Shown here in pieces: positions 5,296 to 60,062 of a stretch of DNA of 64,000 nucleotides (positions are counted from its first letter, which is position 1; every line of letters begins with the position of its first letter). The stretch lies in contig OX621237.1 of the NCBI GenBank assembly GCA_951640165.1, positions 18,104,001 through 18,168,000 of the forward strand, given 5' to 3'. The position numbers were made by a program, and so were the translations under genes. The notes under the pieces are model-generated. The model saw only the letters and a program-made list of their open reading frames with translations. It ran no database searches and was not told the origin of the DNA. The stretch comes from Pseudoips prasinana (lineage: Eukaryota; Arthropoda; Insecta; Lepidoptera; Nolidae).

Positions 5296-5564
5296 AGTAA
5301 CCGTAGCCTAATAGGTAGTGATCCTGCCTACGTAGCTGGTGGTCCTGGGTTCGAATCCCGGTAAGTGCAAATATTTGTGTGATGAGCACAAATCTTTGTT
5401 TCTGAGTCATGGATGTTTTCTATGTATATAAGTATTTATATACATAGAAAACATCTATCTATATAAGTAAGTATATCGTCGCCTGGTACCCATAGTACAA
5501 GCTTTGCTTAGTTTGGGGCTAGGATGATCTGTGTGACATTGTCTCCAGATATTATTATTATTAT
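5296..5564 (+). repeat. tRNA-derived SINE, family 1 (copy 1), nested in family 2
   Basis: Pol III A-box (TAGCCTAATAGGTAGTG) and B-box (GGTTCGAATCCCGG), then the family body (TTTGTGTGATGAGCAC, CGTCGCCTGGTACCCATAGT, GGATGATCTGTGTGACATTG) and an ATT-repeat tail. Matches the copies at 12603 and 26365. It carries a 15-nt inserted segment (5440-5454) that creates a palindrome absent from both sister copies. Confidence 0.85.
5412..5455. repeat. Perfect palindrome, 20-bp arms, 4-nt spacer
   Basis: Arms 5412-5431 and 5436-5455 are exact reverse complements around GTAT. Sister SINE copies lack the 15 nt at 5440-5454, so the right arm is an insertion templated by the left arm. Confidence 0.9.
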
Positions 5565-5672
5565 TTATAAATATATAAGTATTTTATCAGTTGTCAGGTT
5601 GCTATACTACAGGCCCTTCTTAGTTTAGGATGAGATGGCAGCGAATTAGTTGTCCTAAGACATTTATTTCTA

Positions 5673-7529
5673 TTTTTCATATTGAAATACAGTTGAAAAT
5701 AGATAGCATATTGGATGACGTTCATTAATGTTGTAGATTTATTTCTTGATTTTTACAAGAAATCTATACTAAATAAAAAAGTGCCCGATCACTTCATTAG
5801 AAGGACTAATCATCACAAAAAGTTTATGGAGTCATCTCAATCATCACTTCAGATACCTAACGGTTTCTTATAAACTGTTTAAATTTCTTGATATTTTTGT
5901 GTTACCATCATTTTTTTATCTCACTGCTAATATTTGTTTAGCCACAAGTGAGGTAAACCTTTTTTGTTTAACCTTTAACTACATCTACTATGATTATATA
6001 CCTAAGTGATACATTGATCTTGTTCCAAAGACGACATGATAATTGGTATAAAGATTAATAAATTCAAGTTTATATTCCATTTATTATTGAACATAAAGGG
6101 ACCTATAGTACGATTATCAACACTGAACGTATAACGTCAAAGTAACTTGTATAAAATTACATTTTAATTATTAAGACGGCTAAAATTATGTTGCACATGC
6201 AACTCAATTTTTCTCATTTATTAGTCGCCTTAATGTAGGTACTTATCAACAACTAAGTAATTATAGTTACATCGTACAGGAGAAATAAAAAACCCAACCC
6301 AAAAAGAAATTATTTTTCACATGACATAATATTTGAGTGCTAATATTATTAAAAATTAATCATATTACTACATTTTACTTTGCTATAACTAGAGGAGGCT
6401 GTTTAGATAATAAAGCCGGGACACTCCATAGCAAGTGTCATGTTTCATGTCAAACGTCCGCGTCTTATGGCATCACGTCGGAAACAACATGATACGCCAT
6501 TTTAAGATTAAATAGTAGATATAAGAGAATAAACTAAGAGTATATATAAAGACTGATAAATGTGAGTTAATTTACGTGTATGTCTAAATCGCAGTAGATT
6601 GATTTTTAGTTCAACTAATGAAAGTATTTATACTTTGGTATACATTGATTTGTTCATCTTAGTCAACTCAGATTATTGTACTAAGTTGACTATATTATAC
6701 TATATACTAAATTCTACTACTTTCCTATGTTCACTCTACATATACTATCTACTGCGCCTATTCGCTCCTGATTGGTCTAGCTTTATATCTGGATCTACCC
6801 ACTCTATCTGCGTAAAACTCAGTATGCCACCTAACTACTACCATAGGTTAGTGAAGCCGGGACAAAACGTAAAGTATTATTCCTGTCGCTCCACGTACGT
6901 GGCATTAAGATCTATCCTTATACAGACATCTCGTTGAGGTATGCAAAGGTATTGTCCGCGATTAATTTACCGAGATATATACCGAGGTGTATATACAGAA
7001 TATAACTATTCTTCTTATACATTAGTTACTCACCATTCTGCAAAACTGGAAAGAGGCTTACCTGCAAAAAGAAATCGAGGTTATACAACGCGTTTATATA
7101 TAAGTTTATTTTAATAAAATCATTCAAAATACAGAATTAATCACTAAAGTTATAAAAAAAAACATCAAAACGTATTCGACGTGAACTCTTGTTAGTTTAT
7201 AAAAAAACTATTATATGCAAATACCATGCAAATAACCCTATAGTAGATATAGGAGAGCAAGAGATATGCATAAGCAGCAAGTGCGTATCTGATATTATAT
7301 TATGATCTTGATATTATTAAAAATGTTCAACGCACAAAAAGATTTGGCTCTTATTCTCTGAAGCTTCACAAGAACTTCGTCATAAACCTTAACATAAGCG
7401 AGTCTACTTATACAAAATCTGTATGAATGTTTTTTCTTAGATGTTTCTTAGACATAGTCTGGAAATGGTAGGAAAATTATCACCATTACCGACTGACATT
7501 TTGCTTTATCGCCTGCAGCCAGTTTCTCT
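5673..7529. other. AT-rich non-coding stretch
   Basis: No supported gene. The longest open frame (about 6599-6937, +) has no splice or start context and no recognisable domain. Confidence 0.5.
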
Positions 7530-7732
7530 CGCCGCTCCGTAAGTGATCGGAGGGGTTAAGCAACTAGGCGCGCGATCACGCTATAGATGGGTGACCTACA
7601 AAGTGGTGAACGTTAAACTGTCAGTCCCGGTTATAGTCATCAGACAACACGCGATAAGCCATGTCAGAGGCCTACTGGGCGGCTGGAACACTAGGGTGAC
7701 CACTACCCATACGATAAAGAAAGAAAGAAAAG
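7530..7732 (+). repeat. 5S rRNA-derived SINE (SINE3-like)
   Basis: The head reads GATCGGAGGGGTTAAGCAAC (7545-7564) and then GCGCG...TAGATGGGTGACC (to 7596). This matches the 5S rRNA internal promoter region in order (GTTAAGCA A-box, GGATGGGTGACC C-box). It is followed by an unrelated body with GGGCGGCTGGAACACTAGGG and a simple (AAAG)n tail at 7716-7731. A 5S-type promoter, a non-5S body and a simple tail define a 5S-derived SINE. It is not a functional 5S gene: the 5' third is absent or diverged and the 3' stem is replaced. Confidence 0.7.
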
Positions 7733-8063
7733 ATGGCCCTTATCATAAGATACATTACAAAATACCGTACCGTTTATCGCTGTAAAACTGTGACTATAAA
7801 ACTAAATTATATAACTACAGAACATTAATTGTTAGTACAACCCAATTTAACTTCGCTGTAGCGACTTAGGATTTCATTATATAAATTAAAAATAACAAAT
7901 TCAACACTTCAGCAACACATTTTATCACATATTAAAATGTTCTTAAGATTGCTAAAACTGATTTGTGAGTTTTATTTATATAGGCAAGAAAACTTAACAT
8001 AAACTAACATACCTGTTCTAGTAGTTCAATAGTATACGAGTCCTTTTTAATTTTAATAAATAC

Positions 8064-8240
8064 TAGCTGTGCCCTATGTTTTTACCCGCGTTAATGTTTA
8101 TAAATTATAGCCTATGTGTTATTCGGATATATAAGCTATATTACTACAAAGTTCCAGCAATAGACGTTCGTTAGTTTTATCGTGAAGAAGTAACAAACAT
8201 ACACACTCACACAGTCACAAACCTTTATAACATTAGTGTG
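8064..8240. repeat. Dispersed repeat remnant
   Basis: Contains CTAGCTGTGCC, ACCCGCGTTAATG, and GAAGAAGTAACAAACATACA followed by an ACATTAGTG end. Related modules occur at 12538-13115, 41633-41925 and 47818-48155. This is a widespread lepidopteran repeat type whose superfamily I cannot assign. Confidence 0.5.
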
Positions 8241-8817
8241 ATTAATGACTTTTCGACATATAGTCTAAATTAATAGTATTGTGTAAAAACCCCTTAAAAT
8301 GTATTTCCGATCTCACTTTAAATGAGAAAATAAATAAAATGACGACGAGAATAAGACTGAAGTGGAATTACTCTTTCTGCCTCTATTACTATAATATTAA
8401 GATTCATTTTTGTATAAATGAAGATCAATATCGTCAACGTCTTAAAATTCACAAGAGAACTATGAAAACTAAAACGTGAAAAATAATTTGTAGTTCAACA
8501 TGAAATATAGTTTCGATATAAGTAACTGTAGTTCTTTACTACTATCGAAAGGTAATGGCCCATTTAGTATGAAAAATATACCTACGGCGTACAGAAATTA
8601 AATATGGGGGGAATCAAAGACAAATGATTATACTTTTCAATGGTAAGTGGTGCATCACTGTGGCTGATGGGGATCATGAAATAAAATATAACACATTGTA
8701 TTATTGCGCGACCGCAACAAAGATCGGGTGAGACCGAGATAGCAATATACGTGTTATTTATTACCTGACCGAACGAGTTTGCTTTATAAGTGTCACGATG
8801 ATATTTTTATTTAACAA

Positions 8818-9590: not shown

Positions 9591-9628
9591 GAATAACACT
9601 ACTAGATGATAATCTAGTAGTGTTATTC
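9591..9628. repeat. Perfect palindrome, 17-bp arms, 4-nt spacer
   Basis: Arms 9591-9607 and 9612-9628 are exact reverse complements flanking GATA. The flanks are not inverted, so this is an isolated hairpin rather than the end of a larger element. Confidence 0.9.
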
Positions 9629-11641: not shown

Positions 11642-11653
11642 TTATATTTAGAA

Positions 11654-12537: not shown

Positions 12538-13115
12538 GATTAGCTATGTCCCGCGGTTTCACCCACGTTAAAACAGTTTTGGCGTAAAAGAGTAACAAAC
12601 ATAGGTCACCGTAGCCTAGTTGGTAGTGATCCTGCCTACGAAGCTGGTGGTCCTGGGTTCGAATCCCGGTAAGGGTATTTGTGTGATGAGCACGAATATT
12701 TGTTTCTGAGTCATGGATGTTTTCTATGTATATAAGTATTTATCTATCTATATAAGTATGTATATCGTCGCCTGGTACCTATAGTACAAGCTTTGCTTAG
12801 TTTGGGGCTAGGATGATCTGTGTGACATTGTCCCCAGATATTATAAAAAAATATATATATATTCATAAACTTTCGCATTTATAATATTAGTAGGATGTGT
12901 ACCTCTAGCGGTTTTGGCAGTCCCGAAATAGCTCCCAGATGATAGACTTTTTCCTACTTACTTGACACTTATCGTCATATTTTGGACGATTCACACAATA
13001 TCTTTATAAATTGTATTGCTTCATTAAAATGCATTCAGTCGTTTTTACGTGATAGAGTAACAAACATGCATCCATCCATACTTACAAACTTTAACGTTTA
13101 TAATATTAGTAGGAT
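12538..13115. repeat. Composite dispersed repeat hosting a SINE
   Basis: A repeat beginning TTAGCTATGTCCCGCGGTTTC runs to AGAGTAACAAACATA, is interrupted by a SINE, and resumes with CATAAACTTTCGCATTTATA and ATATTAGTAGGAT. A second AGAGTAACAAACATG...ATATTAGTAGGAT module ends near 13115. Homologous modules lie in reverse order at 47818-48155. Confidence 0.55.
12603..12845 (+). repeat. tRNA-derived SINE, family 1 (copy 2)
   Basis: Head TCACCGTAGCCTAGTTGGTAG, B-box GGTTCGAATCCCGG, and the complete body to GTCCCCAGATATT. It lacks the palindromic insertion of copy 1 and so shows the ancestral arrangement. Confidence 0.85.
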
Positions 13116-13290
13116 AACTCAGGAACTAAACCCTTGTATCGCGGGGACTACAATCACTCAGACAGTCACATAAATAGTTGTGATATACGGGGTTCGAAGT
13201 TGGGGTTCGACTACACAAGAGCGCAGAAGTAGTTGCGATACGAGTACCTTAACCACTGCATCACATCAGTCATCGTACAATCACGTTACT

Positions 13291-14442: not shown

Positions 14443-14459
14443 AGGACCATTTTGTCTTT

Positions 14460-14699: not shown

Positions 14700-14808
14700 A
14701 CCGCCTATACCACTAAAACAGTCGCCTCGCCGCTTCATGTCGCGTGTTCGAATCCCGCGCCAGACAACTATTTGTGTGACCCATAAATAGTTGTTCTGGG
14801 TTTGGATG
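14700..14808 (+). repeat. tRNA-derived SINE, left half (split by the gypsy element)
   Basis: B-box GTGTTCGAATCCCGCGC, then TTTGTGTGACCCATAAATAG and GTTCTGGGTTTGGATG. The sequence resumes after the LTR element at 22870 with GATGTAATCTGTGTCC, sharing GATG as the insertion duplication. Confidence 0.65.
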
Positions 14809-14855
14809 TGTGGCCTCCACATATATAAATATATATTTTAATCTCCACTTATATA
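14809..14855 (+). repeat. 5' LTR, left fragment (47 bp)
   Basis: Identical to the first 47 bp of the 3' LTR. It ends in TATA, the target duplication of the nested LINE, which recurs at 17403-17406. Confidence 0.9.
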
Positions 14856-17402
14856 ATAATTTTGCTGGTATGAACCATACTGCCCTCCGCAGTGATGCCA
14901 AAAATATAGATTGGGATCCTCTATTTTCAGCAGAGTCAATAGACGCAAAAATTGATATTTTCACATCAAAAATCATACATTTGTACGATGTTCATCCGCC
15001 TATACGTGCTATCAAGGTTAAACATCTGCCAGCACCGTGGATTAACAACGACTTACAGTCTATTATGCTTAAAAAGGTACAAGCGAAATCTAAGTACAAA
15101 TGTCGTCCCTCGCCTGCTAACTGGGAGAGATACGTTTCCATCCGAAACCATTGCAGCAAGGTGTGTAGGAAAGCACAACGCCAACATGTCCATGACTCAA
15201 TTGAACACGGTAATCCATCAAATGTTTGGAAATTTCTTAAATCAATGGGAGTTGGAAAAACAAGTTCTAACGTAACCTACAAGAATTTAGATATTAATTC
15301 TCTAAATCAACACTTCACGTCGTCATCAAATTATAATATGACAACTAAAGATGATACTATTAAATATCTTTCATCACTTCCAAAGCCCGATTATGCTCCC
15401 TTTGTTTTTAATCAAGTAACCACTTGTGACGTTAGGAGGAACATTTTGTCGATTTCATCGAAAGCTGTTGGTAGTGACAGTATTAGCCGTATTATGATCA
15501 CCTCAATCCTTGAAGAAATACTCCATGTCATCTGTCATATCCTTAACTTTTCTCTGTCCAACGGTTGCTTTCCATCATCATGGAAAGAAGCACATGTAAT
15601 CCCACTACCAAAGAAACCCAATCCTTCATCCTTCACAGAATTTCGTCCTATATCTATTCTTCCATTCCTTTCCAAAGTCCTGGAGCGCCTAGTTTTTAGC
15701 CAGCTCAATACATTCCTCTGCAGAAACCAACTGCTTAACCCCATGCAATCCGGTTTCTGTCAAGGTCATAGTACGGCTACTGCTCTCGTTAAGATTACTG
15801 ACGATATCAGACAAGGCATGGATAATGGACATCTCACTTTACTCTCCTTGCTTGATTTCTCAAATGCTTTCAATACCGTAGACTTTGATATCCTGCTCGG
15901 CATTATACACTCGCTTAACGTATCTCCATTGGTTACTGATTGGTTTCGAAATTACCTGTTCGGCCGTCAACAGCGCATCCGTATAGAAGACACACTCTCT
16001 TCATGGTGTAAACTGTCTGTTGGTGTGCCACAGGGTGGCGTGCTATCTCCTTTACTTTTCGCAATATTTATTAATACCATCTCAAACAATCTCCGTTCTT
16101 CCTACCACCTCTATGCTGATGATTTACAAATATATACACAAGCTTCACTTGAAAATTTGCCCGCCGCCATAGAAATCATAAATGCGGATATGACCCACAT
16201 ATGCGAGTGGAGCAAGTCGTATGGGTTAAATGTAAATCCAGCAAAGACACAGGCCATGGTTGTAGGCAGCTCTAAATTAATAGCTAGAATAGACTGGCTC
16301 CAGCTACCTAAGGTCTATTTTGATCTAAATGTCATTCCTTATAGTGATAAGGTAAAAAACTTAGGTATTTTTATAGATAATACTTTATCCTGGGGTCCTC
16401 AGCTGCAAGAAGTCAGCCGGAAATTATTTGCTTCGGCCGGTTCGTTACGGAGAATCCGTAACTTTCTACCCATACCCACAAAAATTGCGCTTGCACAATC
16501 TCTTCTCTTTCCTATTTTAGACTATGCCGATGCCAGCTATCCTGATCTCACTGTAGCCCAGCTTGACAAACTTGAGCGCCTTCAAAATTATTGCATAAGG
16601 TTCATATTTGGATTACGTAAGTATGATCATGTTTCAGATTATCGCGCTAAGCTCAAGTGGCTGCCTATTCGCCTCCGCCGAGATACTCACTTTCTAACTT
16701 TTTTGTATAACATATTGTTCAATCCTACTACCCCATCATATCTCAAAGAACGTTTCGAGTTCCTAAATGACACACATTCTCTTTCTCTGAGGTCATCGGA
16801 GAACATGCGACTAAAAACTCCTGCCCATTCCACAAACTTTTACACTAACTCTTTCACTGTCCAAGCTGTACGTTTGTGGAATGCCTTACCAATAACGATT
16901 AGACGCGCCCAGTCCATACACGTTTTTAAAAAAATGGTAAAAGATCATTATCTTGCAGAACAAAACCTTAATTAGCAGCGGAACATTCTACAAATCCTCT
17001 CATTAATAAAATATATGTATTTATATGTATATATATATAAATATAATATTATTTATTGTATCTATTTATTTTATTTAGTAGATATATATTGCATGCCTTA
17101 CATATAAATTATGTATACATAGTATTTTAGATAATTATATATTCACCTACAAAGTGTAGGTGTACTCCTACTTAATACTTGATACCTACTTTTTCTGTTT
17201 CTTTTAATCTTTGTCCTTTTACTGAACTTGCTACACCTTTTACCCGTTTTCATTTCATACAACTCTTGTCCATCCTAAGGTTGTCTGTAAGAAATCGCAG
17301 CTAGCGATAAGACCGCCCTTTGTACATTATCATACTACTATTCATGTTCTATTTTGTTATTTATTTGGTGTACAATAAAGAGTATTGTATTGTATTGTAT
17401 TG
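14856..17402 (+). mobile_element. 5'-truncated CR1/Jockey-group LINE inserted in the 5' LTR
   Basis: A 2,547-bp insertion flanked by TATA (14852-14855, 17403-17406). It holds one long RT frame, an AT-rich 3' UTR, AATAAA at 17374-17379 and an (ATTGT)n tail, with no poly-A. A microsatellite tail and short TSD are usual for CR1/Jockey-group elements. The apurinic-type endonuclease and ORF1 are absent, so it is a dead-on-arrival 5' truncation. Confidence 0.85.
14870..16975 (+). CDS. Non-LTR retrotransposon reverse transcriptase (5'-truncated ORF2)
   Basis: An uninterrupted frame to TAA at 16973-16975. The first in-frame ATG inside the LINE is at 14870; the frame is also open upstream into the LTR, where ATG at 14810 would add 20 residues, most of them LTR-encoded. 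The N-terminal 150 residues are the linker between endonuclease and RT (DWDPLF, APWINNDLQSIM). RT blocks follow: FRPISILPFLSKVLERL, LDFSNAFNTVD, GVPQGGVLSPLLFAIFIN and the catalytic HLYADDLQIY (YADD about residues 415-418 from the 14870 start), then the thumb and a C-terminal VRLWNALP motif typical of CR1/Jockey ORF2. No N-terminal endonuclease remains, so it cannot drive standard target-primed transposition. The intact frame indicates recent insertion. Confidence 0.9.
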   Translation: MNHTALRSDAKNIDWDPLFSAESIDAKIDIFTSKIIHLYDVHPPIRAIKVKHLPAPWINNDLQSIMLKKVQAKSKYKCRPSPANWERYVSIRNHCSKVCRKAQRQHVHDSIEHGNPSNVWKFLKSMGVGKTSSNVTYKNLDINSLNQHFTSSSNYNMTTKDDTIKYLSSLPKPDYAPFVFNQVTTCDVRRNILSISSKAVGSDSISRIMITSILEEILHVICHILNFSLSNGCFPSSWKEAHVIPLPKKPNPSSFTEFRPISILPFLSKVLERLVFSQLNTFLCRNQLLNPMQSGFCQGHSTATALVKITDDIRQGMDNGHLTLLSLLDFSNAFNTVDFDILLGIIHSLNVSPLVTDWFRNYLFGRQQRIRIEDTLSSWCKLSVGVPQGGVLSPLLFAIFINTISNNLRSSYHLYADDLQIYTQASLENLPAAIEIINADMTHICEWSKSYGLNVNPAKTQAMVVGSSKLIARIDWLQLPKVYFDLNVIPYSDKVKNLGIFIDNTLSWGPQLQEVSRKLFASAGSLRRIRNFLPIPTKIALAQSLLFPILDYADASYPDLTVAQLDKLERLQNYCIRFIFGLRKYDHVSDYRAKLKWLPIRLRRDTHFLTFLYNILFNPTTPSYLKERFEFLNDTHSLSLRSSENMRLKTPAHSTNFYTNSFTVQAVRLWNALPITIRRAQSIHVFKKMVKDHYLAEQNLN

Positions 17403-17997
17403 TATATTTACCTATTATGTTATTCTTATTTATTTCCATTTCTACATTTCAATAATTACACTATATAATGCATTATTTATATAATTTAATATATATTATA
17501 ACTATATACATAAATACACTACATACATGCCTTACACAATATGTAATAATATATATTTCATACTGACACAAACATACACATCGCGTCGTATGAGTATCGT
17601 ACGATGTAAATACGGAAAGTGCATTTACCTATTCGTACGGCGTGAATGGGTGATAAAGAATTAGCGGGGATCGGCGCGTGCGCCGGCCGCCGAACCGGTA
17701 GTCAGTTGCATTTTTGCTGCACTTCGTGATTCTCGCGTCACTCGATTCTATCGCAATAGCTACCGCTTACCGCGTGTCTATTAGTGTTGAAAGTATTTCT
17801 TTTCCTACTTACTTTCTTTCTTATTCTCTTCTGAACTTTTCTATGGACTATCGCTTGTGTGTATTGTGTGTGACTATTAAACTTTCTTCTGTGTTACGTT
17901 ATTGTGGATATTTATTTGAACCAAGCCCGTAACAAAGAAGGTACCTATAAGTGATTTCTTCTACACTACATCACACACTCACCACCTGCCGACCATA
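17403..17997 (+). repeat. 5' LTR, right fragment
   Basis: 595 bp, collinear with the 3' LTR at a constant offset of 4,872 bp with two substitutions. It carries a GC-rich core near 17670 (GCGCGTGCGCCGGCCGCCG), probably promoter-proximal, and ends GACCATA. Confidence 0.9.
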
Positions 17998-17999
17998 AC

Positions 18000-19065: not shown

Positions 19066-20393
19066 TGGCGACAGACGATTGCCCTGAAGCTGCAGGTCGC
19101 CTTTTCGTTACCGACCGCTCTACGAAAATTAAGTTCCTGGTCGACACTGGCAGTGACTTATGTGTATATCCCCTGTCAGCATTGCGCGAAAGACGATCCA
19201 AAACTAATTTTCAATTATGTGCGGCCAACGGAACGGCTATAGAGACTTTTGGTTTTATAGATCTTAAGTTAGATTTAGGTTTGCGGCGCAATTTTCCATG
19301 GCGCTTCACTGTTGCGGATGTAACAAAGGCCATCATTGGTGTAGATTTTTTAAGCTTCTATAACCTTATTGTTGATGTTCGTTCCCAAAGACTCATAGAT
19401 AATACTACTTCTTTGTATTCTATTGCTTGTACAGCTAATATAAACGTGTGTTCTGTTAAGGTATCATCGGGTGACACGAGGTTTCACGTTTTGCTCAGTA
19501 AATTCCCCGAAATAACTCGACCGTCCGGAACACAGTTTACTCCAAAACATGACACGGTACACTACATTCGCACCACTCCCGGCCCTCCTGTTTTTTGTAC
19601 GCCCCGTAGATTAGCTCCTGATAAACTCCAGGTAGCGAGAAAAGAATTCGAGTTAGCTAATGGCACTGCTCGCCCTTCCGAGAGTTCCTGGGCTTCCCCT
19701 CTACATCTGGCGCCTAAAAAGGATAACGGCTGGAGACCATGCGGAGACTATCGCATGCTTAATGCACGTACAATTCCAGACCGCTACCCTTTACGGCATA
19801 TCCACGACTTTGGCCATTGTATAGCTGGCTGCAAAGTATTTAGCACAATCGACCTAGTCAAGGCCTACAACCAAATACCGGTTCATGAAGCGGATATCCC
19901 GAAGACGGCAATCACCACGCCGTTCGGCATGTTCGAGTTTCCCTCCATGACGTTCGGTTTACGTAATGCTGGACAGACTTTCCAGAGATTCGTAGACGAA
20001 ATGACGAGAGGCCTGGATTTTGTGTATCCATACTGTGATGACTTTTTAGTTTTCTCCAAAGATCATGATATGCATGAAGTTCATCTAAAACAACTATTTC
20101 AACGCATGAAGGAATATGGTATCCTGATTAATACATCGAAATGTGTCTTCGGAGTTAGTGGAGTAACATTTCTTGGTTACCATATTTCTGAAAAAGGTAC
20201 TAAGCCGCTAGAATCTAAGGTGCAGGCTATTAACGACTTTCCAGCCCCAAAAACCGTAAAGCAATTGAGACGATTCTTGGGAATGTTAAATTTCTATAGG
20301 CGATTTATACCCAACGCCGCATTAATTCAAGCCCCATTAAACGCTTTACTTGTGGGTTCAGTAAAAGCTTTCACAATTCACCGGTTAAGGTAA
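19065..20393 (+). CDS. pol: Pol N-terminal half: protease and reverse transcriptase (gypsy)
   Basis: 442 residues from the ATG at 19065-19067, overlapping the gag stop. The aspartic protease active site is LVDTGSD (DTGS at residues 27-30). The RT domain follows with WRPCGDYRMLN, STIDLVKAYNQIPV, TPFGMFEFPSMTFGLRNAGQ, the catalytic PYCDDFLVFS (YCDD 323-326) and the C-terminal LRRFLGMLNFYRRFIPNAA block. The frame ends at TAA 20391 followed at once by TAG 20394, inside a 52-nt palindrome between the RT and RNase H domains. The next segment (20400-22208) is in the same frame, so only these in-frame stops split pol. The preceding residues (AFTIHRLR) are encoded by the inserted arm, not by normal Pol. 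Confidence 0.9.
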   Translation: MATDDCPEAAGRLFVTDRSTKIKFLVDTGSDLCVYPLSALRERRSKTNFQLCAANGTAIETFGFIDLKLDLGLRRNFPWRFTVADVTKAIIGVDFLSFYNLIVDVRSQRLIDNTTSLYSIACTANINVCSVKVSSGDTRFHVLLSKFPEITRPSGTQFTPKHDTVHYIRTTPGPPVFCTPRRLAPDKLQVARKEFELANGTARPSESSWASPLHLAPKKDNGWRPCGDYRMLNARTIPDRYPLRHIHDFGHCIAGCKVFSTIDLVKAYNQIPVHEADIPKTAITTPFGMFEFPSMTFGLRNAGQTFQRFVDEMTRGLDFVYPYCDDFLVFSKDHDMHEVHLKQLFQRMKEYGILINTSKCVFGVSGVTFLGYHISEKGTKPLESKVQAINDFPAPKTVKQLRRFLGMLNFYRRFIPNAALIQAPLNALLVGSVKAFTIHRLR

Positions 20394-20427
20394 TAGGCTG
20401 TGAAGCCTATTACCTTAACCGGTGAAT
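20376..20427. repeat. Perfect palindrome, 24-bp arms, 4-nt spacer, breaking pol
   Basis: Arms 20376-20399 and 20404-20427 are exact reverse complements around GTGA. The right arm encodes normal Pol sequence (PITLTGE). The left arm reads as its complement and carries TAA TAG in frame. The unit of about 30 nt is a multiple of three, so the downstream frame is preserved. Confidence 0.9.
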
Positions 20428-22231: not shown

Positions 22232-22869
22232 TGTGGCCTCCACATATATAAATATATATTTTAATCTCCACTTATATATTTACCTATTATGTTATTCTTA
22301 TTTATTTCCATTTCTACATTTCAATAATTACACTATATAATGCATTATTTATATAATTTAATATATATTATAACTATATACATAAATACACTACATACAT
22401 GCCTTACACAATATGTAATAATATATATTTCATACTGACACAAACATACACATCGCGTCGTATGAGTATCGTACGATGTAAATACGGAAAGTGCATTTCC
22501 CTATTCGTACGGCGTGAATGGGTGATAAAGAATTAGCGGGGATCGGCGCGTGCGCCGGCCGCCGAACCGGTAGTCAGTTGCATTTTTGCTGCACTTCGTG
22601 ATTCTCGCGTCACTCGATTCTATCGCAATAGCTACCGCTTACCGCGTGTCTATTAGTGTTGAAAGTATTTCTTTTCCTACTTACTTTCTTTCTTATTCTC
22701 TTCTGAACTTTTCTATGGACTATCGCTTGTGTGTATTGTGTGTGACTATTAAACTTTCTTCTGTGTTACGTTATTGTGGATATTTATTTGAACCAAGCCC
22801 GAAACAAAGAAGGTACCTATAAGTGATTTCTTCTACACTACATCACACACTCACCACCTGCCGACCATA
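22232..22869 (+). repeat. 3' LTR (638 bp)
   Basis: Starts TGTGGCCTCC and ends CCGACCATA, followed by the GATG duplication. Intact, with two differences from the reassembled 5' LTR. Confidence 0.95.
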
Positions 22870-26364: not shown

Positions 26365-26625
26365 GGTCACCGTAGCCTAGTTGGTAGTGCTCCTGCCTAC
26401 GAAGCTGGTGGTCCTGGGTTCGAATCCCGGTAAGTGCAAATATTTGTGTGATGAGCACGAATATTTGTTTCTCAAGTCATGGATGTTTTCTATGTATATA
26501 AAAATTTATCTATCCATATAATTATGTATATCGTCGCCTGGTACCCATAGTACAAGCTTTGCTTAGTTTGGGGTTAGGATGATCTGTGTGAGATTGTCCC
26601 TAGATATTATTATTATATTATAAAT
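26365..26625 (+). repeat. tRNA-derived SINE, family 1 (copy 3)
   Basis: GGTCACCGTAGCCTAGTTGG, B-box GGTTCGAATCCCGG, and the full body to GTCCCTAGATATT with an ATT tail. No palindromic insertion. Confidence 0.85.
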
Positions 26626-30195: not shown

Positions 30196-30357
30196 CTGCA
30201 GTACTGGCCATTTCAAATCAAAATAATTTTTGTTTGGCTAAGAATTCTAATTTCAAATTAATTTTATTTTAAAAACATGGATTCTTTTTTCCAAAAGTAG
30301 TCATTTCTTTATTGATTAGTGTTACATTTTCATCGCATTTCAATCTTTTTCGTCATC

Positions 30358-31377
30358 ATGGATACGTTAAAAATTCGAGTAATTATGGAATATGAGTACC
30401 GTCGTGGCAGCAACGTGGCACAAGCGGCACGCAACATCAACGACGTTTACGGAGCTAACACTACAAACCAACGCACCACCTGTTATTGGTTTGCTCGCTT
30501 CCGTTCTGGAAATTTCGACCTGAAAAATGAACCTCGCGGTCGTCCGAAGACTTTGGTCGACAATGACGAATTAAAGGCGGTTGTGGAAGCTGATGATACA
30601 CAATCTACGGCTGAATTAGCAGCAGCTTTCGACGTTAGCGTCAAAACAATATTGGTCCATTTGCGTCAAATTGGCAAGGTAAAAAAGCTTGACAAATGGG
30701 TGCCCCACGAACTCAATGATCGCCAGCGCGAAGTACGCGTCGAGACGTGCCTTGCACTGCTCAACAGACACACAAATGAAGGAATTTTGAACCGCATTGT
30801 TACCTGCGATGAAAAATGGATTCTGTTTGATAACCGCAAGCGCTCAGCAAGTTGGTTGGATCCTGGTTCAGCACCTAAACAATGCCCTAAACGAAAACTT
30901 ACCCCTAGAAAAGTGATGGTCACTGTTTGGTGGTCTAGCGCCGGTGTGATTCATCACAGCTTCTTACCAAACGGGGTGAGCATTACTGCAGATGTGTACT
31001 GTGAAGAACTGAGCACAATGATGGAGAAGCTGGCGCATCTCCAACCAGCATTGGTCAATCGCTCGTCTCCGCTGCTCCTGCACGACAACGCGCGACCTCA
31101 TACTGCACAGCAGACGGTCTCCAAGTTGCAAGAACTGGGGTTGGAAGCTCTCCGTCATCCGCCCTACTCACCAGACCTTGCGCCTACAGACTACTACTTT
31201 TTCCAGAATTTGGATAACTTCTTGGCGGGAAAAAAATTCAATACCCGAGAGGCAGTACAAAATGCCTTTGAAGAATTTGTTGCCTCCCGTCCAGCTGATT
31301 TCTTTAAGAAGGGCATCAATAAACTGCCACTGCGATGGCAAAGATGCATTGATTGCATGGGTGATTACTTCGATTAA
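30358..31377 (+). CDS. mariner transposase (DD34D)
   Basis: 339 residues from ATG 30358 to TAA 31375-31377; Hsmar1-type transposases are about 343. It binds the TIRs and catalyses cut-and-paste transposition into TA sites. The N-terminal half has two helix-turn-helix regions (about residues 1-55 and 80-112) linked by the GRPK AT-hook-like motif (61-64), then the signature KWVPHEL (113-119). The catalytic triad is complete: Asp151 (VTCDEKW), Asp243 (LLHDNARPHTA) and Asp278 (YSPDLAPTDYY), with 34 residues between the last two. The sequence is strikingly like vertebrate Hsmar1/SETMAR transposase, placing it in the cecropia subfamily. An upstream in-frame extension exists, but 30358 is the first ATG and fits the family start. 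No frameshift or stop is seen; activity is inferred from integrity only. Confidence 0.95.
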   Translation: MDTLKIRVIMEYEYRRGSNVAQAARNINDVYGANTTNQRTTCYWFARFRSGNFDLKNEPRGRPKTLVDNDELKAVVEADDTQSTAELAAAFDVSVKTILVHLRQIGKVKKLDKWVPHELNDRQREVRVETCLALLNRHTNEGILNRIVTCDEKWILFDNRKRSASWLDPGSAPKQCPKRKLTPRKVMVTVWWSSAGVIHHSFLPNGVSITADVYCEELSTMMEKLAHLQPALVNRSSPLLLHDNARPHTAQQTVSKLQELGLEALRHPPYSPDLAPTDYYFFQNLDNFLAGKKFNTREAVQNAFEEFVASRPADFFKKGINKLPLRWQRCIDCMGDYFD

Positions 31378-34600: not shown

Positions 34601-35040
34601 CATGGTGGATTCACATAAATCTTGCCTCGTTATTTTTTTATTCTATTATGCTGACAGTTGTTTGGAAGAAGATGAAAAATAAATATAGCCCACTAATTTG
34701 GTAGAAATATACTCAAGGGGAAGTAATTTAATTTGTGGTGGATAACCCATTTCTTGAGCACTTGGTGCACCTTCACGTATAGAATGTATGAATAGTGATT
34801 ACATGGTTATTCAATACTTACATGGTGGATTCACATAAATCTTGCCTCGTTATTTTTTTATTCTATTATGCTGACAGCTGTTTTGAAGAAGATGAAAAAT
34901 AAATATATCCCACTAATTTGGTTGAAATATACTCAAGGGGAAGTAATTTGATTTGTGGTGGATAACCCATTTCTTGAGCACTTGGTGCACCTTCACGTAT
35001 AGAATGTATGAATAGTGATAACATAGTTATTGAATACTTT
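34601..35040. repeat. 220-bp tandem duplication
   Basis: Unit 34601-34820 is repeated at 34821-35040 with roughly a dozen substitutions. Both begin CATGGTGGATTCACATAAAT and contain GGTGGATAACCCATTTCTTG. The - strand of each unit is open for some 50 codons (ending FSSSSKQLSA in the second copy), but no function is recognised. Confidence 0.85.
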
Positions 35041-43347: not shown

Positions 43348-43418
43348 TCGGCCCGTTCGCATGGTTGGTAAATACTTGACTTTCACGCCGCAGGTCGTGG
43401 GTTCGATTCCCACCCAGG

Positions 43419-43555
43419 GCTCTACCGGCTAAGTCGCCGAACATCGATTTCTTAAATGGCGTTCAAATAAATAAAGGTTAAAAATTACTTAATCAATCGT
43501 TATTTATTTGAACGCCATTTAAGATATCGATGTTCGGCGACCTAGCCGGTAGAGC
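43419..43555. mobile_element. 137-bp fold-back MITE inside the SINE
   Basis: Terminal inverted repeats of about 55 bp (43419-43473 and 43501-43555) begin GCTCTACCGGCTAAGTCGCC and differ at only two positions, separated by 27 bp. CCCAGG at 43413-43418 and 43556-43561 is the likely target duplication, since other family 4 SINEs have one CCCAGGACAG here. No coding capacity; the superfamily is unknown. Confidence 0.85.
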
Positions 43556-43643
43556 CCCAGGACAGATATTTGTGAACATGTCTGATAGTCCTGAGTCTGG
43601 GTGTAATTATCTATATATGTAAGTATCTATTTACAAAGGGAAA

Positions 43644-43681
43644 ATTGTATATCAATTATCACCAGATAATTGATATACAAT
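43644..43681. repeat. Perfect palindrome, 17-bp arms, ACCA spacer
   Basis: Arms 43644-43660 and 43665-43681. The left arm is ordinary SINE sequence; the right arm is its inverted copy. Confidence 0.9.
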
Positions 43682-43684
43682 ATA

Positions 43685-43752
43685 CCATTCTCAAACTAAA
43701 CAGAGCTGGTATGGGAACCATCCCATACCAGCTCTGTTTAGTTTGAGAATGG
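43685..43752. repeat. Perfect palindrome, 32-bp arms, ACCA spacer
   Basis: Arms 43685-43716 and 43721-43752. Here the right arm is ordinary SINE sequence (CAGCTCTGTTTAGTTTGAGA) and the left arm is the inverted copy, mirroring the neighbouring palindrome. Confidence 0.9.
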
Positions 43753-53590: not shown

Positions 53591-54540
53591 ATAGGATATT
53601 ATTATTATAGGATACTATTATTGACATAAACATTATAATAGGTATCGCATTAAAAAAATCCTATATTAGCTAATATTGTGCCAATAGGTCCTAAGGCCAT
53701 TAACGCCATGGCTTGCTTTTGGCGATTGAGTAAACGAAAGATTAGGGAACCCAAAACTACCTATATACCACAACGGCCGGCATTATAAGGTGGTGCATAA
53801 CGGCCGGTAGCCTATGTTCCCGCTGCGTTTTGAAACTAAATTTATTAGTGTTTCCGAGTACCTCATAGTGCCCGTAAAGTATCGTCATGTCCATACTTCT
53901 GTGTGTCCGCCAAGCCAAAAATCCTAGCCAAGTGCGAGTAAGGCAAGTAAGAAAGAGATGACAGAGATACGGACAGACGGACGCAGAGTCCCTTTTGCAC
54001 CCTTTAAGTACGGAACCCCCTAACTAAAAGGTGACTTATTTTAAGCGGTTAGCGTAGCCTCTGACGCCTGCACCAACATGGCATCATACAACCATTACTG
54101 ACCCTTCCACGCTCCCACAACAAGCTACTCCAACATACAGAAGACCACAACACTAAGGTAATATCTTGAGTTCCGTAAATTTTTGCTGGTCATAATTTTC
54201 TTCGTAATTTCTTACTAGACACAAGATGACTGTATAAACGGAAAGAATGGAAAGAGTACCTAACTGAAATATTTGAACAAACGTTGTAAGTTGCCTAAGA
54301 ACTTCGTACTGCTAAGTAGAATCCGCATTTACTATCACATCATCTCAAATGAAAATTAAGTTACAGAACTTGAGTTGTAGTCGGAGGTTATTTTATAGTT
54401 AAGTAAATTTTTCGTTGCCATGACCTCGGGCTTTACTGTGTTCTATTTTGATTGTTTTAGTTTTATAGTTGTCTAGTTTGATTTGGGTTTATTTTTAATA
54501 AACATGGTATTTTTAATAAAATCAATAGATTTTATATCTA

Positions 54541-54690
54541 TATAATTATGTAAGTAACAATGACTATAAGTTATCCGTATTTGTAATTTACAAAAGTAAA
54601 GTTGTAGGTATATGTAATATATCAGTTATCTGGTTTCCATACTACAAGCTTTGCTTAGTTTGAGATCATGTGGCCGTGTGGGTGCCGTAT
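54541..54690 (+). repeat. 5'-truncated family 4 SINE
   Basis: TATATCAGTTATCTGGTTTC, CATACTACAAGCTTTGCTTA and GAGATCATGTGGCCGTGTG match the SINE 3' half. Copied again at 55570-55719 by the tandem duplication. Confidence 0.7.
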
Positions 54691-54775
54691 TAATGGCCAA
54701 GAGTCGTTTTTCTTTTAAGAATAAACTACGAGTACATTTACTGGGAGCTCTTAACAATGTGTGAGCTGAATCAAC

Positions 54776-54927
<152 letters not shown>

Positions 54928-55001
54928 ATATTTATGTATGTATTAGCTATAGTATTATAGGTATGTTTAAGTTGTATATTATCCTTTATATATATTTATG
55001 T

Positions 55002-55818
55002 ACAGACGGACGCAGAGTCCCTTTTGCACCCTTTAAGTACGGAACCCCCTAACTAAAAGGTGACTTATTTTAAGCGGTTAGCGTAGCCTCTGACGCCTGC
55101 ACCAACATGGCATCATACAACCATTACTGACCCTTCCACGCTCCCACAACAAGCTACTCCAACATACAGAAGACCACAACACTAAGGTAATATCTTGAGT
55201 TCCGTAAATTTTTGCTGGTCATAATTTTCTTCGTAATTTCTTACTAGACACAAGATGACTGTATAAACGGAAAGAATGGAAAGAGTACCTAACTGAAATA
55301 TTTGAACAAACGTTGTAAGTTGCCTAAGAACTTCGTACTGCTAAGTAGCATCCGCATTTACTATCGCATCATCTCAAATGAAAATTAAGTTACAGAACTT
55401 GAGTTGTAGTCGGAGGTTATTTTATAGTTAAGTAAATTTTTCGTTGCCATGACCTCGGGCTTTACTGTGTTCTATTTTGATTGTTTTAGTTTTATAGTTG
55501 TCTAGTTTGATTTGGGTTTATTTTTAATAAACATGGTATTTTTAATAAAATCAATAGATTTTATATCTATATAATTATGTAAGTAACAATGACTATAAGT
55601 TATCCGTATTTGTAATTTACAAAAGTAAAGTTGTAGGTATATGTAATATATCAGTTATCTGGTTTCCATACTACAAGCTTTGCTTAGTTTGAGATCATGT
55701 GGCCGTGTGGGTGCCGTATTAATGGCCAAGAGTCGTTTTTCTTTTAAGAATAAACTACGAGTACATTTACTGGGAGCTCTTAACAATGTGTGAGCTGAAT
55801 CAACATTTCCTTTCGTTA

Positions 55819-55911
<93 letters not shown>

Positions 55912-56015
55912 TATAAATAATATATATAACGAAAGGAAATATATTTATGTATGTATTAGCTATAGTATTATAGGTATGTTTAAGTTGTATATTATCCTTT
56001 ATATATATTTATGTA
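55002..56015. repeat. Tandem duplication, unit 2
   Basis: Head-to-tail copy of 53973-55001. I see two substitutions (near 55349 and 55363) plus a (TA)n tract shorter by 16 bp. Very recent. Confidence 0.95.
55805..55940. repeat. Palindromic AT-rich repeat, copy 2
   Basis: Same arms as copy 1; total length 136 bp against 152 bp. Confidence 0.9.
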
Positions 56016-57107: not shown

Positions 57108-57118
57108 TTTTGTTCCTG

Positions 57119-57154
57119 ACGAGTCACAATGTGACATGTTACATTGTGACTCGT
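57119..57154. repeat. Palindrome, 14-bp arms, 8-nt spacer
   Basis: ACGAGTCACAATGT (57119-57132) and its exact complement at 57141-57154. Confidence 0.85.
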
Positions 57155-57189
57155 TGGGATCAATCGAGAATTATATAATGTAAGGCCTA

Positions 57190-57600
57190 GGGGGAATGCC
57201 TACGCATGCCACCCGCAAAAAGTGTCTACGGGTGGGTATGTCGGACTCGCAACGACTAAACCTACCTGCCGTGGACTTCTCTTGGCGCCTGATGAGAGGA
57301 GCCCCGGAAACGCGGGTATGCTGCTCCGGTGCCCCTCTTTTACGCCATGTCCCAGATGGTCGGGACACGTACCCTGGGAGGGCTTGGGATTGCCCTCCCC
57401 TATTGCCGACTCCTGCCAGTCTGGCACAGCGACTGTGCCACAAACAGATCGCTGTCTTCCCTGAGCTGCTTGTAAGTGGCCGCAGTAGAGGACACTTCTC
57501 ACACTGCCACCGCAGCCCCGAGGGGAGTTGGGCTACCGGCTGCCGCCGCCGCCCCGACGCCTCCTCCGTCTACGAGTGGGATCGGCTCGAATAATGTCTA
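57190..57600 (-). repeat. GC-rich retroposed fragment (copy 2), longer 5' end
   Basis: Reverse-strand relative of 14460-14669, with the same 3' terminus (GGGTGGCATGCG) and an additional 200 bp upstream (CGGCGGCGGCAGCC region). TAAGGCCTA at 57181-57189 and 57601-57609 is a likely 9-bp TSD. One frame is conserved between copies (PGYVSRPSGTWRK, IRRQEKSTAGRFSRC, SDIPTRRHFLRVAC), so the source may be coding. Not identified. Confidence 0.65.
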
Positions 57601-57997
57601 TAAGGCCTATACCATAATTTGGATTACTGTGGATCAAGCGTAAACTTTTCGCACTAAGGATTCTAAACCGCCAATTTAGAAGGTAAACACTACCCACTAC
57701 CGCACTAAATCATTCTATACTGCATGTATTTAGTCCGAACTAAATCCTTGGTTTTGGCAGTCTGTAAATTTCAGGCTTGTAGTAATAACTGGAAGCCTAG
57801 TAACGATTTCATTATAAGCTAGGCGTTGCAGAAGTATTAAATAAGCGTTTTATGTAACGTCTAGATACTTTTAATCATTTATAATTGGTATATCCTAAGT
57901 CCATTTTATACAGAAACTATGAATGTTCTACAAATAGAATATGGCCGTCATACCTAAACATTATTCCATTATGGCCTATGCGTCTGTTACAGACGAT

Positions 57998-58249
57998 TTA
58001 CGGCGCATTGTCTGAGAGACATTTCTTATGGTGGCAAAACAAACCTATGCGAGAGCGATATAGCCTGCCGCAAGCCTGACAAGAGAAGTTTGCGGTGGTT
58101 GGTGCCGAGCCACTTTCATGTCGCTTCTGTCTCCTATCAGCAAGTACTCCGAACCAGGCTTCATCACAGATCTTACGACCCTCCACTACACGTTTGCGCC
58201 ATTCAACTATATTTTCAGCGAGCTTTTCGCAAATGCACATATGCACCAT
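57998..58249 (-). pseudogene. C-terminal LINE fragment with zinc-knuckle-like motif
   Basis: 83 residues on the - strand ending at TAA/TGA near 57998. The C-terminus FSCQACGRLYRSRIGLFCHH followed by KKC is the CxxCGRxxxSRIGLxxHxxxC motif at the end of many insect LINE reverse transcriptases. The preceding part (WRKRVVEGRKICDEAWFGVL) fits the linker. No RT domain remains, so this is a 5'-truncated remnant, not a host zinc-finger gene. Confidence 0.65.
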
Positions 58250-59512
58250 AAAATACTAAGTATGCTACCGAACTCTGTTCCCATTTTCATAACTACCATA
58301 AACGAGGTTTCCTAGCTACCATTATTATTACCAAGCTCAATTTTATATCTCTAAAAAGTAGGCGCTAATAACCGTATGTAAATACGAGTACATAAGTTAG
58401 ATATTCAACGAGATTTCTCGTTGAACAAAGGATTAACACGGGAATAATAACTGGGTGATAATTTAAATTATCACGATAGATCGCGTACTTTTAGATAAAA
58501 TAGCAAATAGAATTTTGTATTTACCCAGGATTATAAATATAAAGAGATTTAGAACCGCTAGTAACAAAACCTTAACGAAAATAAAAGTCAACATAAAACA
58601 TTGGTTTGGTTAGCAACGTAGCGATACGAAATGAATTTTACGATAATGCGTAAAATAAATAATTCTATGGATATTTTTATTAATAATATAACGATTTGCA
58701 AAAATCTATTTAGCCGGCGAACAGTAATTACGTAATACCCTGAATATTCCAGAAAATCTTGTCCTAATAATAGGCAATAGACAAATCAGTTCCAATATTG
58801 GAAATATATATTGGAAATATTTAGTTAATAATAGGTATCTACAATATTTAGTTATGTATGTCGTTGTTTACTAGACATTGTCGTTATAGAAAACTTTCTA
58901 CTTTCTCTAATATTCTTTAGTACAAAAAGCTTGTTACATAAATTAGCCTCGAAAAACTTCAGCACATTTAACATGATATTCCTACTCTATATTTATTGTA
59001 CGCAACTCAAACAACAACAATATTTTATTACTTTTCATATGAAAACGCATTGCAGCAAAAACTTACCTTGACCATACACTAAACGAAGGCAATGTATTTA
59101 ATTATTTACGATTGCACACCAATCCAAAACGCAATCACGACGGGTAAAAATTGCATTTTTATTCGAGCGCTCACCAAAATTATAGGCACGGTAAATTGCA
59201 ATACTTGCATATTTGCACAAAAATATATAACGCTCTGAGCCACCGTGTCCGCGCATGTTATCGTGGATTAATTAAAATTGTACGTTTAAATATACATAAA
59301 TAATTTACGAATCGTGTTGTCTGCTTGAAAAGCACGTTTAACGACTGTTAATAAAGATTTACCTATTTGTACTCGTATAAGTCTAGAAGTAACGTGGTTT
59401 CATTATTCAGGCTTTGTTATAGCGCTATATAAACGCTGCAGTAAGAATTATACTATCACATATTCTTTAATTTAATTGGCTCTTCATAAAACTGGGCATA
59501 TCGTAAGCATGG
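58250..59512. other. AT-rich non-coding stretch
   Basis: No gene supported. Two short perfect palindromes are present: TTCAACGAGA-TT-TCTCGTTGAA (58404-58425) and the spacerless 20-mer GTGATAATTTAAATTATCAC (about 58454-58473). Confidence 0.45.
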
Positions 59513-59640
59513 CTGTTATACAGGGTGGCCGAGAAGTTGACGTTCAAACGCAAAATTTAGATACTTTATGATGAGGAGTATCCGAATCACCCCCATGTAT
59601 GTTCTACGAACGTCAACTCCTCAGCCACCCTGTATAACAG
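59513..59640. mobile_element. 128-bp MITE (CAGGGTGGC ends)
   Basis: 32-bp inverted ends starting CTGTTATACAGGGTGGC match with 2 differences. The ~64-bp interior (GATACTTTATGATGAGGAGT) is unrelated. Non-coding. Confidence 0.8.
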
Positions 59641-59781
59641 GGTTCTTTATTAAACACCAACAACTCCGCAGGACTAGACAGCTAACACCATAAGCATTAA
59701 ATTTGTTCTATTTATTAAATTAGTTGTACTTTTGGTAATTTGTAAGATTTAATTTCCTATTTGAATGATTATAACACTACG

Positions 59782-59905
59782 TACAGACGCCAGCACATCA
59801 AGCTACCCCTATCTGAAAATTTCCCCGATTGAAAGTGAACCTTATGCTTATGTGATAAAGTTGAAATTTGACAGATTGGGGTAGCTGGATGTGCTGGCGT
59901 CTGTA
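59782..59905 (-). mobile_element. MITE family M1, copy C
   Basis: TACAGACGCCAGCACATCAA...GATGTGCTGGCGTCTGTA with interior GAAAGTGAACCTTATGC. The most compact and symmetrical copy (124 bp). Confidence 0.9.
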
Positions 59906-60004
59906 CATTACAAAACTACGTAAATATACCCTTGCGAAAGCGCGGGCAAGTGGTGCAGCGCTAGCGCTTTTGAACTTGGCCCATTTCTCCAGTCGCCAGT
60001 CGTC

Positions 60005-60062
60005 TGTGTAACATTTTATTTTTCATGTATTACTCAATACATGAAAAATAAAATGTTACACA
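60005..60062. repeat. Perfect palindrome, 27-bp arms, 4-nt spacer
   Basis: Arms 60005-60031 and 60036-60062 are exact complements around ACTC. Confidence 0.9.

What the first reader, a model, noticed from the sequence alone, without database searches (positions are those of the whole stretch)
5412..60062. Six perfect hairpins, all with exactly 4-nt spacers, scattered across the window
Perfect inverted repeats at 5412-5455 (20-bp arms, GTAT), 9591-9628 (17, GATA), 20376-20427 (24, GTGA), 43644-43681 (17, ACCA), 43685-43752 (32, ACCA) and 60005-60062 (27, ACTC) share no sequence but have identical geometry. Arms of 17-32 bp are far beyond chance, and a constant tetraloop is not what TIR elements or random decay give. 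At least four lie inside mobile elements where relatives or reading frame show the palindrome is an insertion. I infer a recurrent mutational process: a strand folds back on a small pre-existing stem with a 4-nt loop, copies its own neighbour, then returns to the normal template. Looser relatives are at 57119-57154 (8-nt spacer) and 61349-61391 (5-nt spacer, one mismatch).
Basis: partly seen in the sequence, partly recalled or inferred. Interest (0 to 1): 0.75.

Follow-up and report, generated by a model that had tools for sequence, protein, structure and literature searches.

The report
Inverted-copy insertions forming perfect DNA hairpins
Short perfect hairpins are common in this 1.1-billion-base genome because small pieces of DNA were copied backwards beside themselves; the four-base spacer seen in this window is not a general rule, but the loops are mostly flipped, which points to a specific kind of DNA copying or repair mistake.

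Summary
All six perfect palindromes exist exactly as stated. Five are insertions: sister copies of the host repeats lack them; 9591-9628 is unique. They belong to a genome-wide class: 16 per 200 kb in 20 random stretches (arms >=13, spacer <=12). The constant 4-nt spacer does not hold: spacers start at 0 and are mostly 2-9, so five independent events all at 4 is a chance cluster (about 1e-4; the genome holds 17,589 such windows).

In 24 of 29 the loop is the reverse complement of the ancestral bases, mostly with no such stem, so it came from the other strand. The pair 43644-43681/43685-43752 is one event: X-TGGT-Y became X-ACCA-X'-ATA-Y'-ACCA-Y. Four such two-sided events were seen; each shares exactly 4 central bases. 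I favour staggered breaks whose ends closed as hairpins, reopened off-centre and were joined; inter-strand template switching is the main rival.

The parts
5412..5455 (.). Perfect hairpin (20-bp arms, loop GTAT); left arm old; loop in original orientation; pre-existing 4-bp stem ATAA/TTAT in most sisters; fold-back type
   Evidence: five sister copies (window 12605-12844, L027, L036, L043, L048) and window 26366-26625 lack the 15-nt insert
5297..5572 (+). Short repeat with a tRNA-like head (SINE-like) that holds hairpin 5412-5455; other copies at 12605-12844 and 26366-26625
   Evidence: self-BLAST 87-93%; tRNA family match at 26373-26430, 30.4 bits, E 0.025
9591..9628 (.). Perfect hairpin (17-bp arms, loop GATA) with no relative found in the genome; cannot be polarised
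   Evidence: only its own locus matches
20376..20427 (.). Perfect hairpin (24-bp arms, loop GTGA); right arm old; loop is reverse complement of ancestral TCAC; net 30-nt in-frame insert with stops TAA TAG at 20391-20396
   Evidence: seven close sister copies 322 bp against 352; L053, L054
17400..22869 (+). LTR retrotransposon holding hairpin 20376-20427; LTRs 17400-17997 and 22272-22869 are 99.5% identical, so the insert is young
   Evidence: LTR pair; RVT_1, RNase H, integrase zinc-binding and rve domains, DUF7041
43644..43681 (.). Left half of a two-sided event: X-ACCA-X' (17-bp arms)
   Evidence: sisters read X-TGGT-Y
43682..43684 (.). ATA filler between the two new arms
43685..43752 (.). 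Right half of the same event: Y'-ACCA-Y (32-bp arms, right arm old; Y is diverged from the sisters)
   Evidence: both hairpins share exactly the 4 central bases ACCA
60005..60062 (.). Perfect hairpin (27-bp arms, loop ACTC); left arm old; loop is reverse complement of ancestral GAGT
   Evidence: L052 has GAGT, L051 a longer variant; of seven further sisters L095-L101 four have GAGT, one CAGC, two lack these bases
57119..57154 (.).
61349..61391 (.). Looser relative: arms of 19 with one mismatch, 5-nt spacer; probably a decayed palindrome

Best explanation
Each palindrome is the scar of a mutational event that placed an inverted copy of the neighbouring bases (arms 11-46 in the scored repeat-family cases) directly beside the original (shown). 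In most events the inverted copy also contains the few bases (n, about 2-12) just beyond the original arm, and those bases are then usually missing in their original orientation (shown where it could be scored): X-n-Y becomes X-n'-X'-Y, where ' means reverse complement. [quoted passage not shown] the overhang bridges the two strands of its own end and is sealed into a hairpin with an n-base loop; the hairpin is reopened tens of bases from its tip; the flap is filled in and joined to the other end, which may be trimmed or itself carry such a hairpin. When both ends do this the result is X-n'-X'-filler-Y'-n'-Y, which is what lies at 43644-43752. A minority, including 5412-5455, arose by ordinary fold-back priming on a pre-existing 4-bp stem. 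The spread of decay suggests that the process goes on.
For: Polarised by sister copies, by eye: inverted loop in 20376, 60005, 43644, 43685, L010 2906, L010 2340, L031 8382, L037 5865, L049 2036; original orientation in 5412 only. Independent set: pattern CCAAACTAAGC N{0,30} GCTTAGTTTGG in this genome gave 88 palindromes, reversed-pattern control 0. Flanks were fetched for 40 of the 50 listed. The script gave 25 inverted, 6 original, 8 unresolved, 1 uninformative; without the n=1 cases, 24 against 5. Pre-existing stem >=4 bp: 5 of 5 original-orientation cases against 2 of 24 inverted by script, 3 of 24 counting L058 by hand (Fisher p=0.0005 with 3 of 24). In the 11 of the 24 inverted cases where the script found the resume point, it lay -1 to 14 bases beyond the end of n. 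Four two-sided events, each with the same loop in both hairpins and exactly 4 shared central bases: window 43644-43752 ACCA, L026 2207-2289 GTAC, L064 CTAT, L091 TAGA. One break with two processed ends explains this directly. Graded decay: of 37 inverted repeats in 264 kb, 17 perfect and 20 with 1-12 mismatches.
Against: No step of breaking, sealing or reopening is seen, and I know of no enzyme established to seal such loops in animals (recalled). The inverted-loop rule is equally expected from an inter-strand template switch. Loop length varies from 1 to 12 in one-sided events, so a single stagger-making enzyme cannot be the source. 20376 and L011 373 seem to keep n on the far side as well. 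Eight of 40 flank sets stayed unresolved; were all direct, the ratio would be 24 to 13. Only four two-sided events were found, two of which fix n at exactly 4 (ACCA, CTAT) while two allow less (GTAC, TAGA). One search also lists neighbouring short inverted repeats (arms 6-11) with different loops beside L026, L059, L072, L082, L086, L091, L092 and L093; I took them for unrelated, several being an inverted repeat of the element itself. A search for more swapped arms gave five places, of which only L091 was confirmed.
Confidence: 0.45

Rival explanations
1. Inter-strand template switch at a fork or strand-displacement junction: the growing strand at X jumps n bases ahead onto the other strand of the same polarity, copies back over n and X, then returns to its own template at or beyond the end of n (order 3-1-2-4 in the four-point model).
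For: Gives inverted loops without a pre-existing stem and a return point beyond n, as in 10 of the 11 inverted cases where the script found the resume point (L065 keeps one base of n). The four-point model states that a point 2 ahead of point 1 requires inter-strand switching (PMC7954356, passages). Short 5' flaps are proposed as sites of inverted synthesis in yeast rad27 mutants (PMC11724301, section 19).
Against: Does not predict that both halves of a two-sided event share the same central 4 bases. In great apes the majority patterns 1-4-3-2 and 3-2-1-4 keep the loop orientation (my derivation from the ordering given).
Confidence: 0.36
2. One reading: a strand folds back on a small pre-existing stem, copies its neighbour and returns.
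For: 5412-5455 and 5 of 29 scorable repeat-family cases, all on a 4-bp stem. Short inverted duplications by fold-back at breaks are documented in yeast (PMC11724301, abstract and sections 15, 19, 22).
Against: Loop inverted in 24 of 29 and 9 of 10; pre-existing stem 0-1 bp in 20 of the 24 inverted cases.
Confidence: 0.06
3. Topoisomerase II-type 4-nt staggered breaks are the source, giving 4-nt loops.
For: All four two-sided events share exactly 4 bases; all five window events have spacer 4. Trapped Top2 leaves breaks with a four-nucleotide overhang, repaired by end joining into 2-4 nt duplications (PMC11477040, passages).
Against: One-sided events have n from 1 to 12; the Top2 signature in those passages is direct duplication, not palindromes.
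Confidence: 0.08
4. Sequencing or assembly fold-back artefact.
For: Perfect palindromes are a known artefact form (recalled).
Against: 20 of 37 inverted repeats in 264 kb carry mismatches, as inherited and decaying sequence does, though some of the 20 are element-specific inverted repeats; junctions show filler and trimming. No raw reads were available.
Confidence: 0.02
5. Each is an independent small inverted-repeat mobile element.
For: Five of the six lie in repeats.
Against: Where polarised, the arms are copies of the host repeat's own neighbouring sequence and have no shared end.
Confidence: 0.01

Closest known systems
Short-range template-switch mutations (four-point model; PMC7954356, PMC8794818)
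   Same: One-step creation of perfect inverted repeats and hairpins by copying a nearby sequence in reverse; both intra- and inter-strand forms; loop inversion through a forward inter-strand jump is in the legend of Fig. 1E-F of PMC8794818 (passage).
   Different: In great apes the majority patterns keep the loop direct (my derivation) and the median copied length is 12; here 24 of 29 loops are inverted, arms in the scored cases are 11-46 bp (found with an 11-base word, so shorter ones are missed), and two-sided events share the same 4 bases.
Fold-back inverted duplications at double-strand breaks in yeast (PMC11724301, PMC10622511, PMC7467729)
   Same: Inverted copies beside a break, end-joining-like far junction in PMC11724301; short loops (medians 3-5.5 nt) in mre11/sae2 mutants.
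   Different: Those use an inverted microhomology at the centre, which by geometry keeps the loop direct; most cases here do neither.
P nucleotides from hairpin-closed ends in V(D)J recombination and hAT excision (recalled, no call)
   Same: Palindromic insert from off-centre opening of a hairpin-closed end.
   Different: P nucleotides are a few bases and have no unpaired loop; here arms are tens of bases with a 2-12 nt loop.
Trapped topoisomerase II duplications, signature ID17 (PMC11477040, passages)
   Same: 4-nt stagger, end joining.
   Different: Direct duplications of 2-4 nt, not palindromes.

Membership tests
Template-switch mutation (four-point model) | Inverted copy of nearby sequence inserted in one step | tested here: met
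   Sister copies without the insert; that it was one step is inferred
Template-switch mutation (four-point model) | Typical majority pattern with loop in original orientation (1-4-3-2 / 3-2-1-4) | tested here: not met
   24 inverted against 5 original of 29 scorable
Template-switch mutation (four-point model) | Arises during DNA replication | not testable with these tools
   Needs mutants or mutation-accumulation lines
Fold-back inverted duplication at a break | Pre-existing inverted microhomology at the centre | tested here: not met
   Stem >=4 bp in 2 of 24 inverted-loop cases by script (3 with L058 by hand); met in 5 of 5 direct-loop cases and in 5412
Fold-back inverted duplication at a break | Loop keeps its orientation | tested here: not met
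   24 of 29 inverted plus 9 of 10 by eye; 33 of 39 palindromes, 32 of 38 events
Fold-back inverted duplication at a break | Far junction joined with little homology | tested here: inconclusive
   Filler and small losses seen by eye; script found the resume point in 16 of 40
Topoisomerase II 4-nt staggered break | Stagger of 4 | tested here: inconclusive
   4 of 4 two-sided events share exactly 4 bases, but one-sided n runs 1-12
Fold-back sequencing artefact | Only perfect palindromes, none inherited | tested here: not met
   20 of 37 carry mismatches, some of them element-specific inverted repeats
Fold-back sequencing artefact | Absent from independent reads | not testable with these tools
   No reads held

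The most novel reading that the evidence does not exclude
In this germline, staggered double-strand breaks are often repaired through ends that seal themselves into loop-closed hairpins, sometimes both ends of the same break, and are reopened tens of bases away. This would be a long-range counterpart of P-nucleotide formation that has written on the order of 100,000 perfect palindromes into the genome, with a two-sided class fixed at a 4-nt stagger.
Probability: 0.25. Interest if true: 0.78.

Novelty: new variant of a known kind. Interest (0 to 1): 0.58.

Why it matters
A common and apparently continuing source of perfect hairpins (16 in 200 kb: about 80 per Mb, roughly 90,000 by extrapolation) could feed new small-RNA precursors, cruciforms and gene disruption; one event put stop codons into a retrotransposon pol gene. 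High-copy repeats with a known ancestral sequence turn a long-read genome into a test bench: loop orientation and shared central bases tell fold-back, inter-strand switching and hairpin-end repair apart by sequence alone. The bias to inverted loops and the two-sided events are specific, countable predictions.

Tried and rejected
Constant 4-nt spacer as a genome-wide rule: rejected. Topoisomerase II as sole source: rejected because of loop-length spread. Fold-back on a pre-existing stem as the general route: rejected. Break-fusion or repeated loop flipping, which should give about half inverted loops: disfavoured (24 against 5, p=0.0005; 33 against 6 with the sister-resolved set, p=1.4e-5; 43644 and 43685 count as two there though they are one event). 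9591-9628 could not be polarised because no relative was found. L014 2315, L015 2027, L041 5063, L032 2079, L011 373 and both L026 hairpins gave no usable orientation. One search listed 37 palindromes (arms >=12, spacer <=12); I looked at sister evidence for 17 of them and could score 10. The search for more two-sided events gave 5 places; the first follow-up was too strict to match even L091 and found 0, the looser one only L091. Ten of the 50 listed palindromes and its 38 unlisted ones were never polarised. The word used lies beside the stem AAGC-AGA-GCTT, which may inflate the direct class in that set. Rfam and ARAGORN scans gave only a tRNA-like head of a repeat. One paper search on Top2 terms found no paper. 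By hand I read L080 as direct and L083 and L094 as inverted; the script left them unresolved and they are not counted.

Literature: PMC11724301 abstract and sections 15, 19, 22 read; PMC8794818, PMC7954356, PMC7467729, PMC10622511 and PMC11477040 as passages; PMC8604942 as abstract start in search listings only; Loytynoja and Goldman 2017 not held, known through citing papers. I found no description of an inverted-loop majority or of two-sided events with shared central bases in the listings of searches; that covers open-licence papers only, and supplements were not open to me.
Full report
What was checked. The window is G000:C3:18104001-18168000 of a 1.126-Gb assembly in 56 contigs, by size and content a eukaryote (inference); its name is not given. 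All six perfect palindromes are present exactly as written. In the window plus 20 random 10-kb stretches there are 21 inverted repeats with arms of at least 15 and spacers up to 12, low-complexity arms removed, against 0.0 in ten resamples.

The constant spacer. In the random stretches (20 obtained of 180 drawn) 16 palindromes with arms >=13 and spacers up to 12 have spacers 1, 4 x3, 5 x3, 6 x2, 7 x3, 8, 9 x3. In a repeat family with about 110 exact copies of a 12-base word per Mb (22 in 200 kb), a pattern for palindromes over 11 of those bases found 88, with 0 for the reversed pattern; the 50 listed have spacers from 0 to 27, 34 of them 2 to 8. So 4 is common but not special for single hairpins. 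With 4 at 6 of 38 among spacers up to 10, five of five has a chance of about 1e-4, in a genome of 17,589 such windows. The window is a striking but unsurprising cluster.

They are insertions. 5412-5455: five sister copies in one alignment and a further window copy in another lack a 15-nt stretch. 20376-20427: seven close copies of the LTR retrotransposon are 322 bp long where the window has 352; the insert is in frame and brings TAA TAG at 20391-20396. The two LTRs of this copy are 99.5% identical, so the event is young. 43644-43752 and 60005-60062: sisters read straight through. 9591-9628 has no relative found in the genome.

What was copied. Let X be the old arm, n the bases that follow it in the sisters, Y what comes next. 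A strand that folds back on itself must give X-n-X' with n unchanged. That is what 5412 shows, on a pre-existing stem ATAA-GTAT-TTAT. The other polarised cases show X-n'-X', the loop reversed and complemented: 20376 (loop GTGA, sisters TCAC), 60005 (ACTC; GAGT in L052 and four of seven further sisters), 43644 and 43685 (ACCA; TGGT), and in other loci L010 2906 (6 nt, one mismatch), L049 2036 (7 nt, last base differs), L031 8382 (9 nt, six match), L010 2340 and L037 5865 (4 nt, one mismatch each). These were scored by eye: 9 inverted against 1 direct palindrome, or 8 against 1 as events; seven further palindromes that I looked at were not usable.

Independent test. For 40 of the 50 listed palindromes in the repeat family I fetched the flanks, which show which arm is old because the repeat's upstream part continues only there. 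A script scored loop orientation: 25 inverted, 6 direct, 6 with side unresolved, 2 with loop unresolved, 1 with no loop. Leaving out one-base loops (L085 direct, L086 inverted), 24 inverted and 5 direct. Some inverted calls are weaker: L063, L065, L092, L093 with one mismatch, L091 with one of two bases, L071 with a borderline side score. All 5 direct cases sit on the pre-existing stem AAGC-(AAA or AGA)-GCTT; among the 24 inverted ones a stem of 4 bp or more exists in 2 by script, 3 with L058 read by hand, and 20 have 0-1 bp. The script found where the repeat resumes in 16 of 40; in the 11 of these that are inverted cases the point lies -1 to 14 bases beyond the end of n, so n is not kept, except for one base in L065. 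Two window or sample cases (20376, L011 373) seem to keep n on the far side.

Two-sided events. At 43644-43752 both halves carry the loop ACCA and the sisters read X-TGGT-Y: the product is X-ACCA-X'-ATA-Y'-ACCA-Y. Three more have this form: L026 2207-2289 (both centred on GTAC, arms abutting, no sister across the break), L064 (CTAT in both, 13 bases between the perfect arms, one mismatch in Y' by eye) and L091 (AG in both, TAGA when the next pair is included). In each the two centres share exactly four bases. For ACCA and CTAT the loop is unpaired, so n is 4; for GTAC and TAGA smaller n is possible. Two chance events would hardly share their centre. One search also lists neighbouring shorter inverted repeats with other loops near eight loci, which I did not count as two-sided. 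A search for more found five candidate places and confirmed only L091, so this class is rare, and its 4-nt rule rests on four cases.

Reality and age. Of 37 inverted repeats in 264 kb found with mismatches allowed, 17 are perfect and 20 carry 1-12 mismatches; two resamples gave none. Some of the 20 are inverted repeats proper to transposable elements. The spread of decay is what an ongoing process gives and what a read artefact does not. Raw reads were not available.

Mechanism. Shown: an inverted insertion, loop mostly from the other strand, mostly no priming stem, loss of n on the far side where scored, occasional processing of both sides around the same four bases. Inferred: staggered breaks whose overhangs close the end as a hairpin, reopened off-centre and joined. 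The rival is a switch of the polymerase to the other strand a few bases ahead at a fork or flap. Both give inverted loops; the two-sided events favour the break. Fold-back on a stem is a real minority route.

Known relatives. Four-point template-switch mutations cover the geometry; in great apes the majority patterns, by my derivation, keep the loop direct, with median copied length 12 and 1503 events in the strict set (PMC7954356, passages). Loop inversion by a forward inter-strand jump is described for RNA hairpins, and 4-nt loops are enriched there among compensatory changes (PMC8794818, passages). Yeast breaks yield short inverted duplications by fold-back plus end joining, limited by RPA, with inverted insertions in rad27 mutants (PMC11724301, abstract and sections 15, 19, 22); short-loop fold-backs dominate without Mre11 or Sae2 (PMC7467729, passages; see also PMC10622511, passages). 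Trapped Top2 gives four-nucleotide overhangs and small duplications (PMC11477040, passages). The inverted-loop majority and the shared-centre two-sided events are what I could not find described in the searches listed under Tried and rejected.

Noticed in passing
window 53973-56015: Head-to-tail duplication of about 1 kb (98% identical), each copy with a long TA microsatellite.
   Followed up: no
window 34601-35039: Two head-to-tail copies of a 220-bp unit, 96% identical.
   Followed up: no
window 43417-43557: Imperfect inverted repeat with arms of 65 and 5 mismatches (25 perfect, 25-nt spacer inside) just upstream of the two-sided hairpin; looks like ends proper to a mobile element.
   Followed up: no
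window 30316-31374: Open frame of 353 aa matching Transposase_1 and the Mos1 helix-turn-helix: possibly a full-length mariner-type transposase gene.
   Followed up: partly
window 14780-16972: 731-aa open frame with a reverse transcriptase domain, separate from the LTR element.
   Followed up: partly
L056, L071, L074, L090: Four palindromes at different places share the same break: the old arm ends just before GCTTG and n is those five bases (L071 with a borderline side score); a possible hot spot next to a small AAGC/GCTT stem.
   Followed up: partly
L060: After the new arm the repeat's upstream part begins again in direct orientation, as if the return point lay behind the start.
   Followed up: no
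L031-L050 (random stretches): Commonest non-simple word family (TCCGGGCCATAC and neighbours) looks like part of a tandem repeat, 46 counts of one 12-mer in 200 kb.
   Followed up: no
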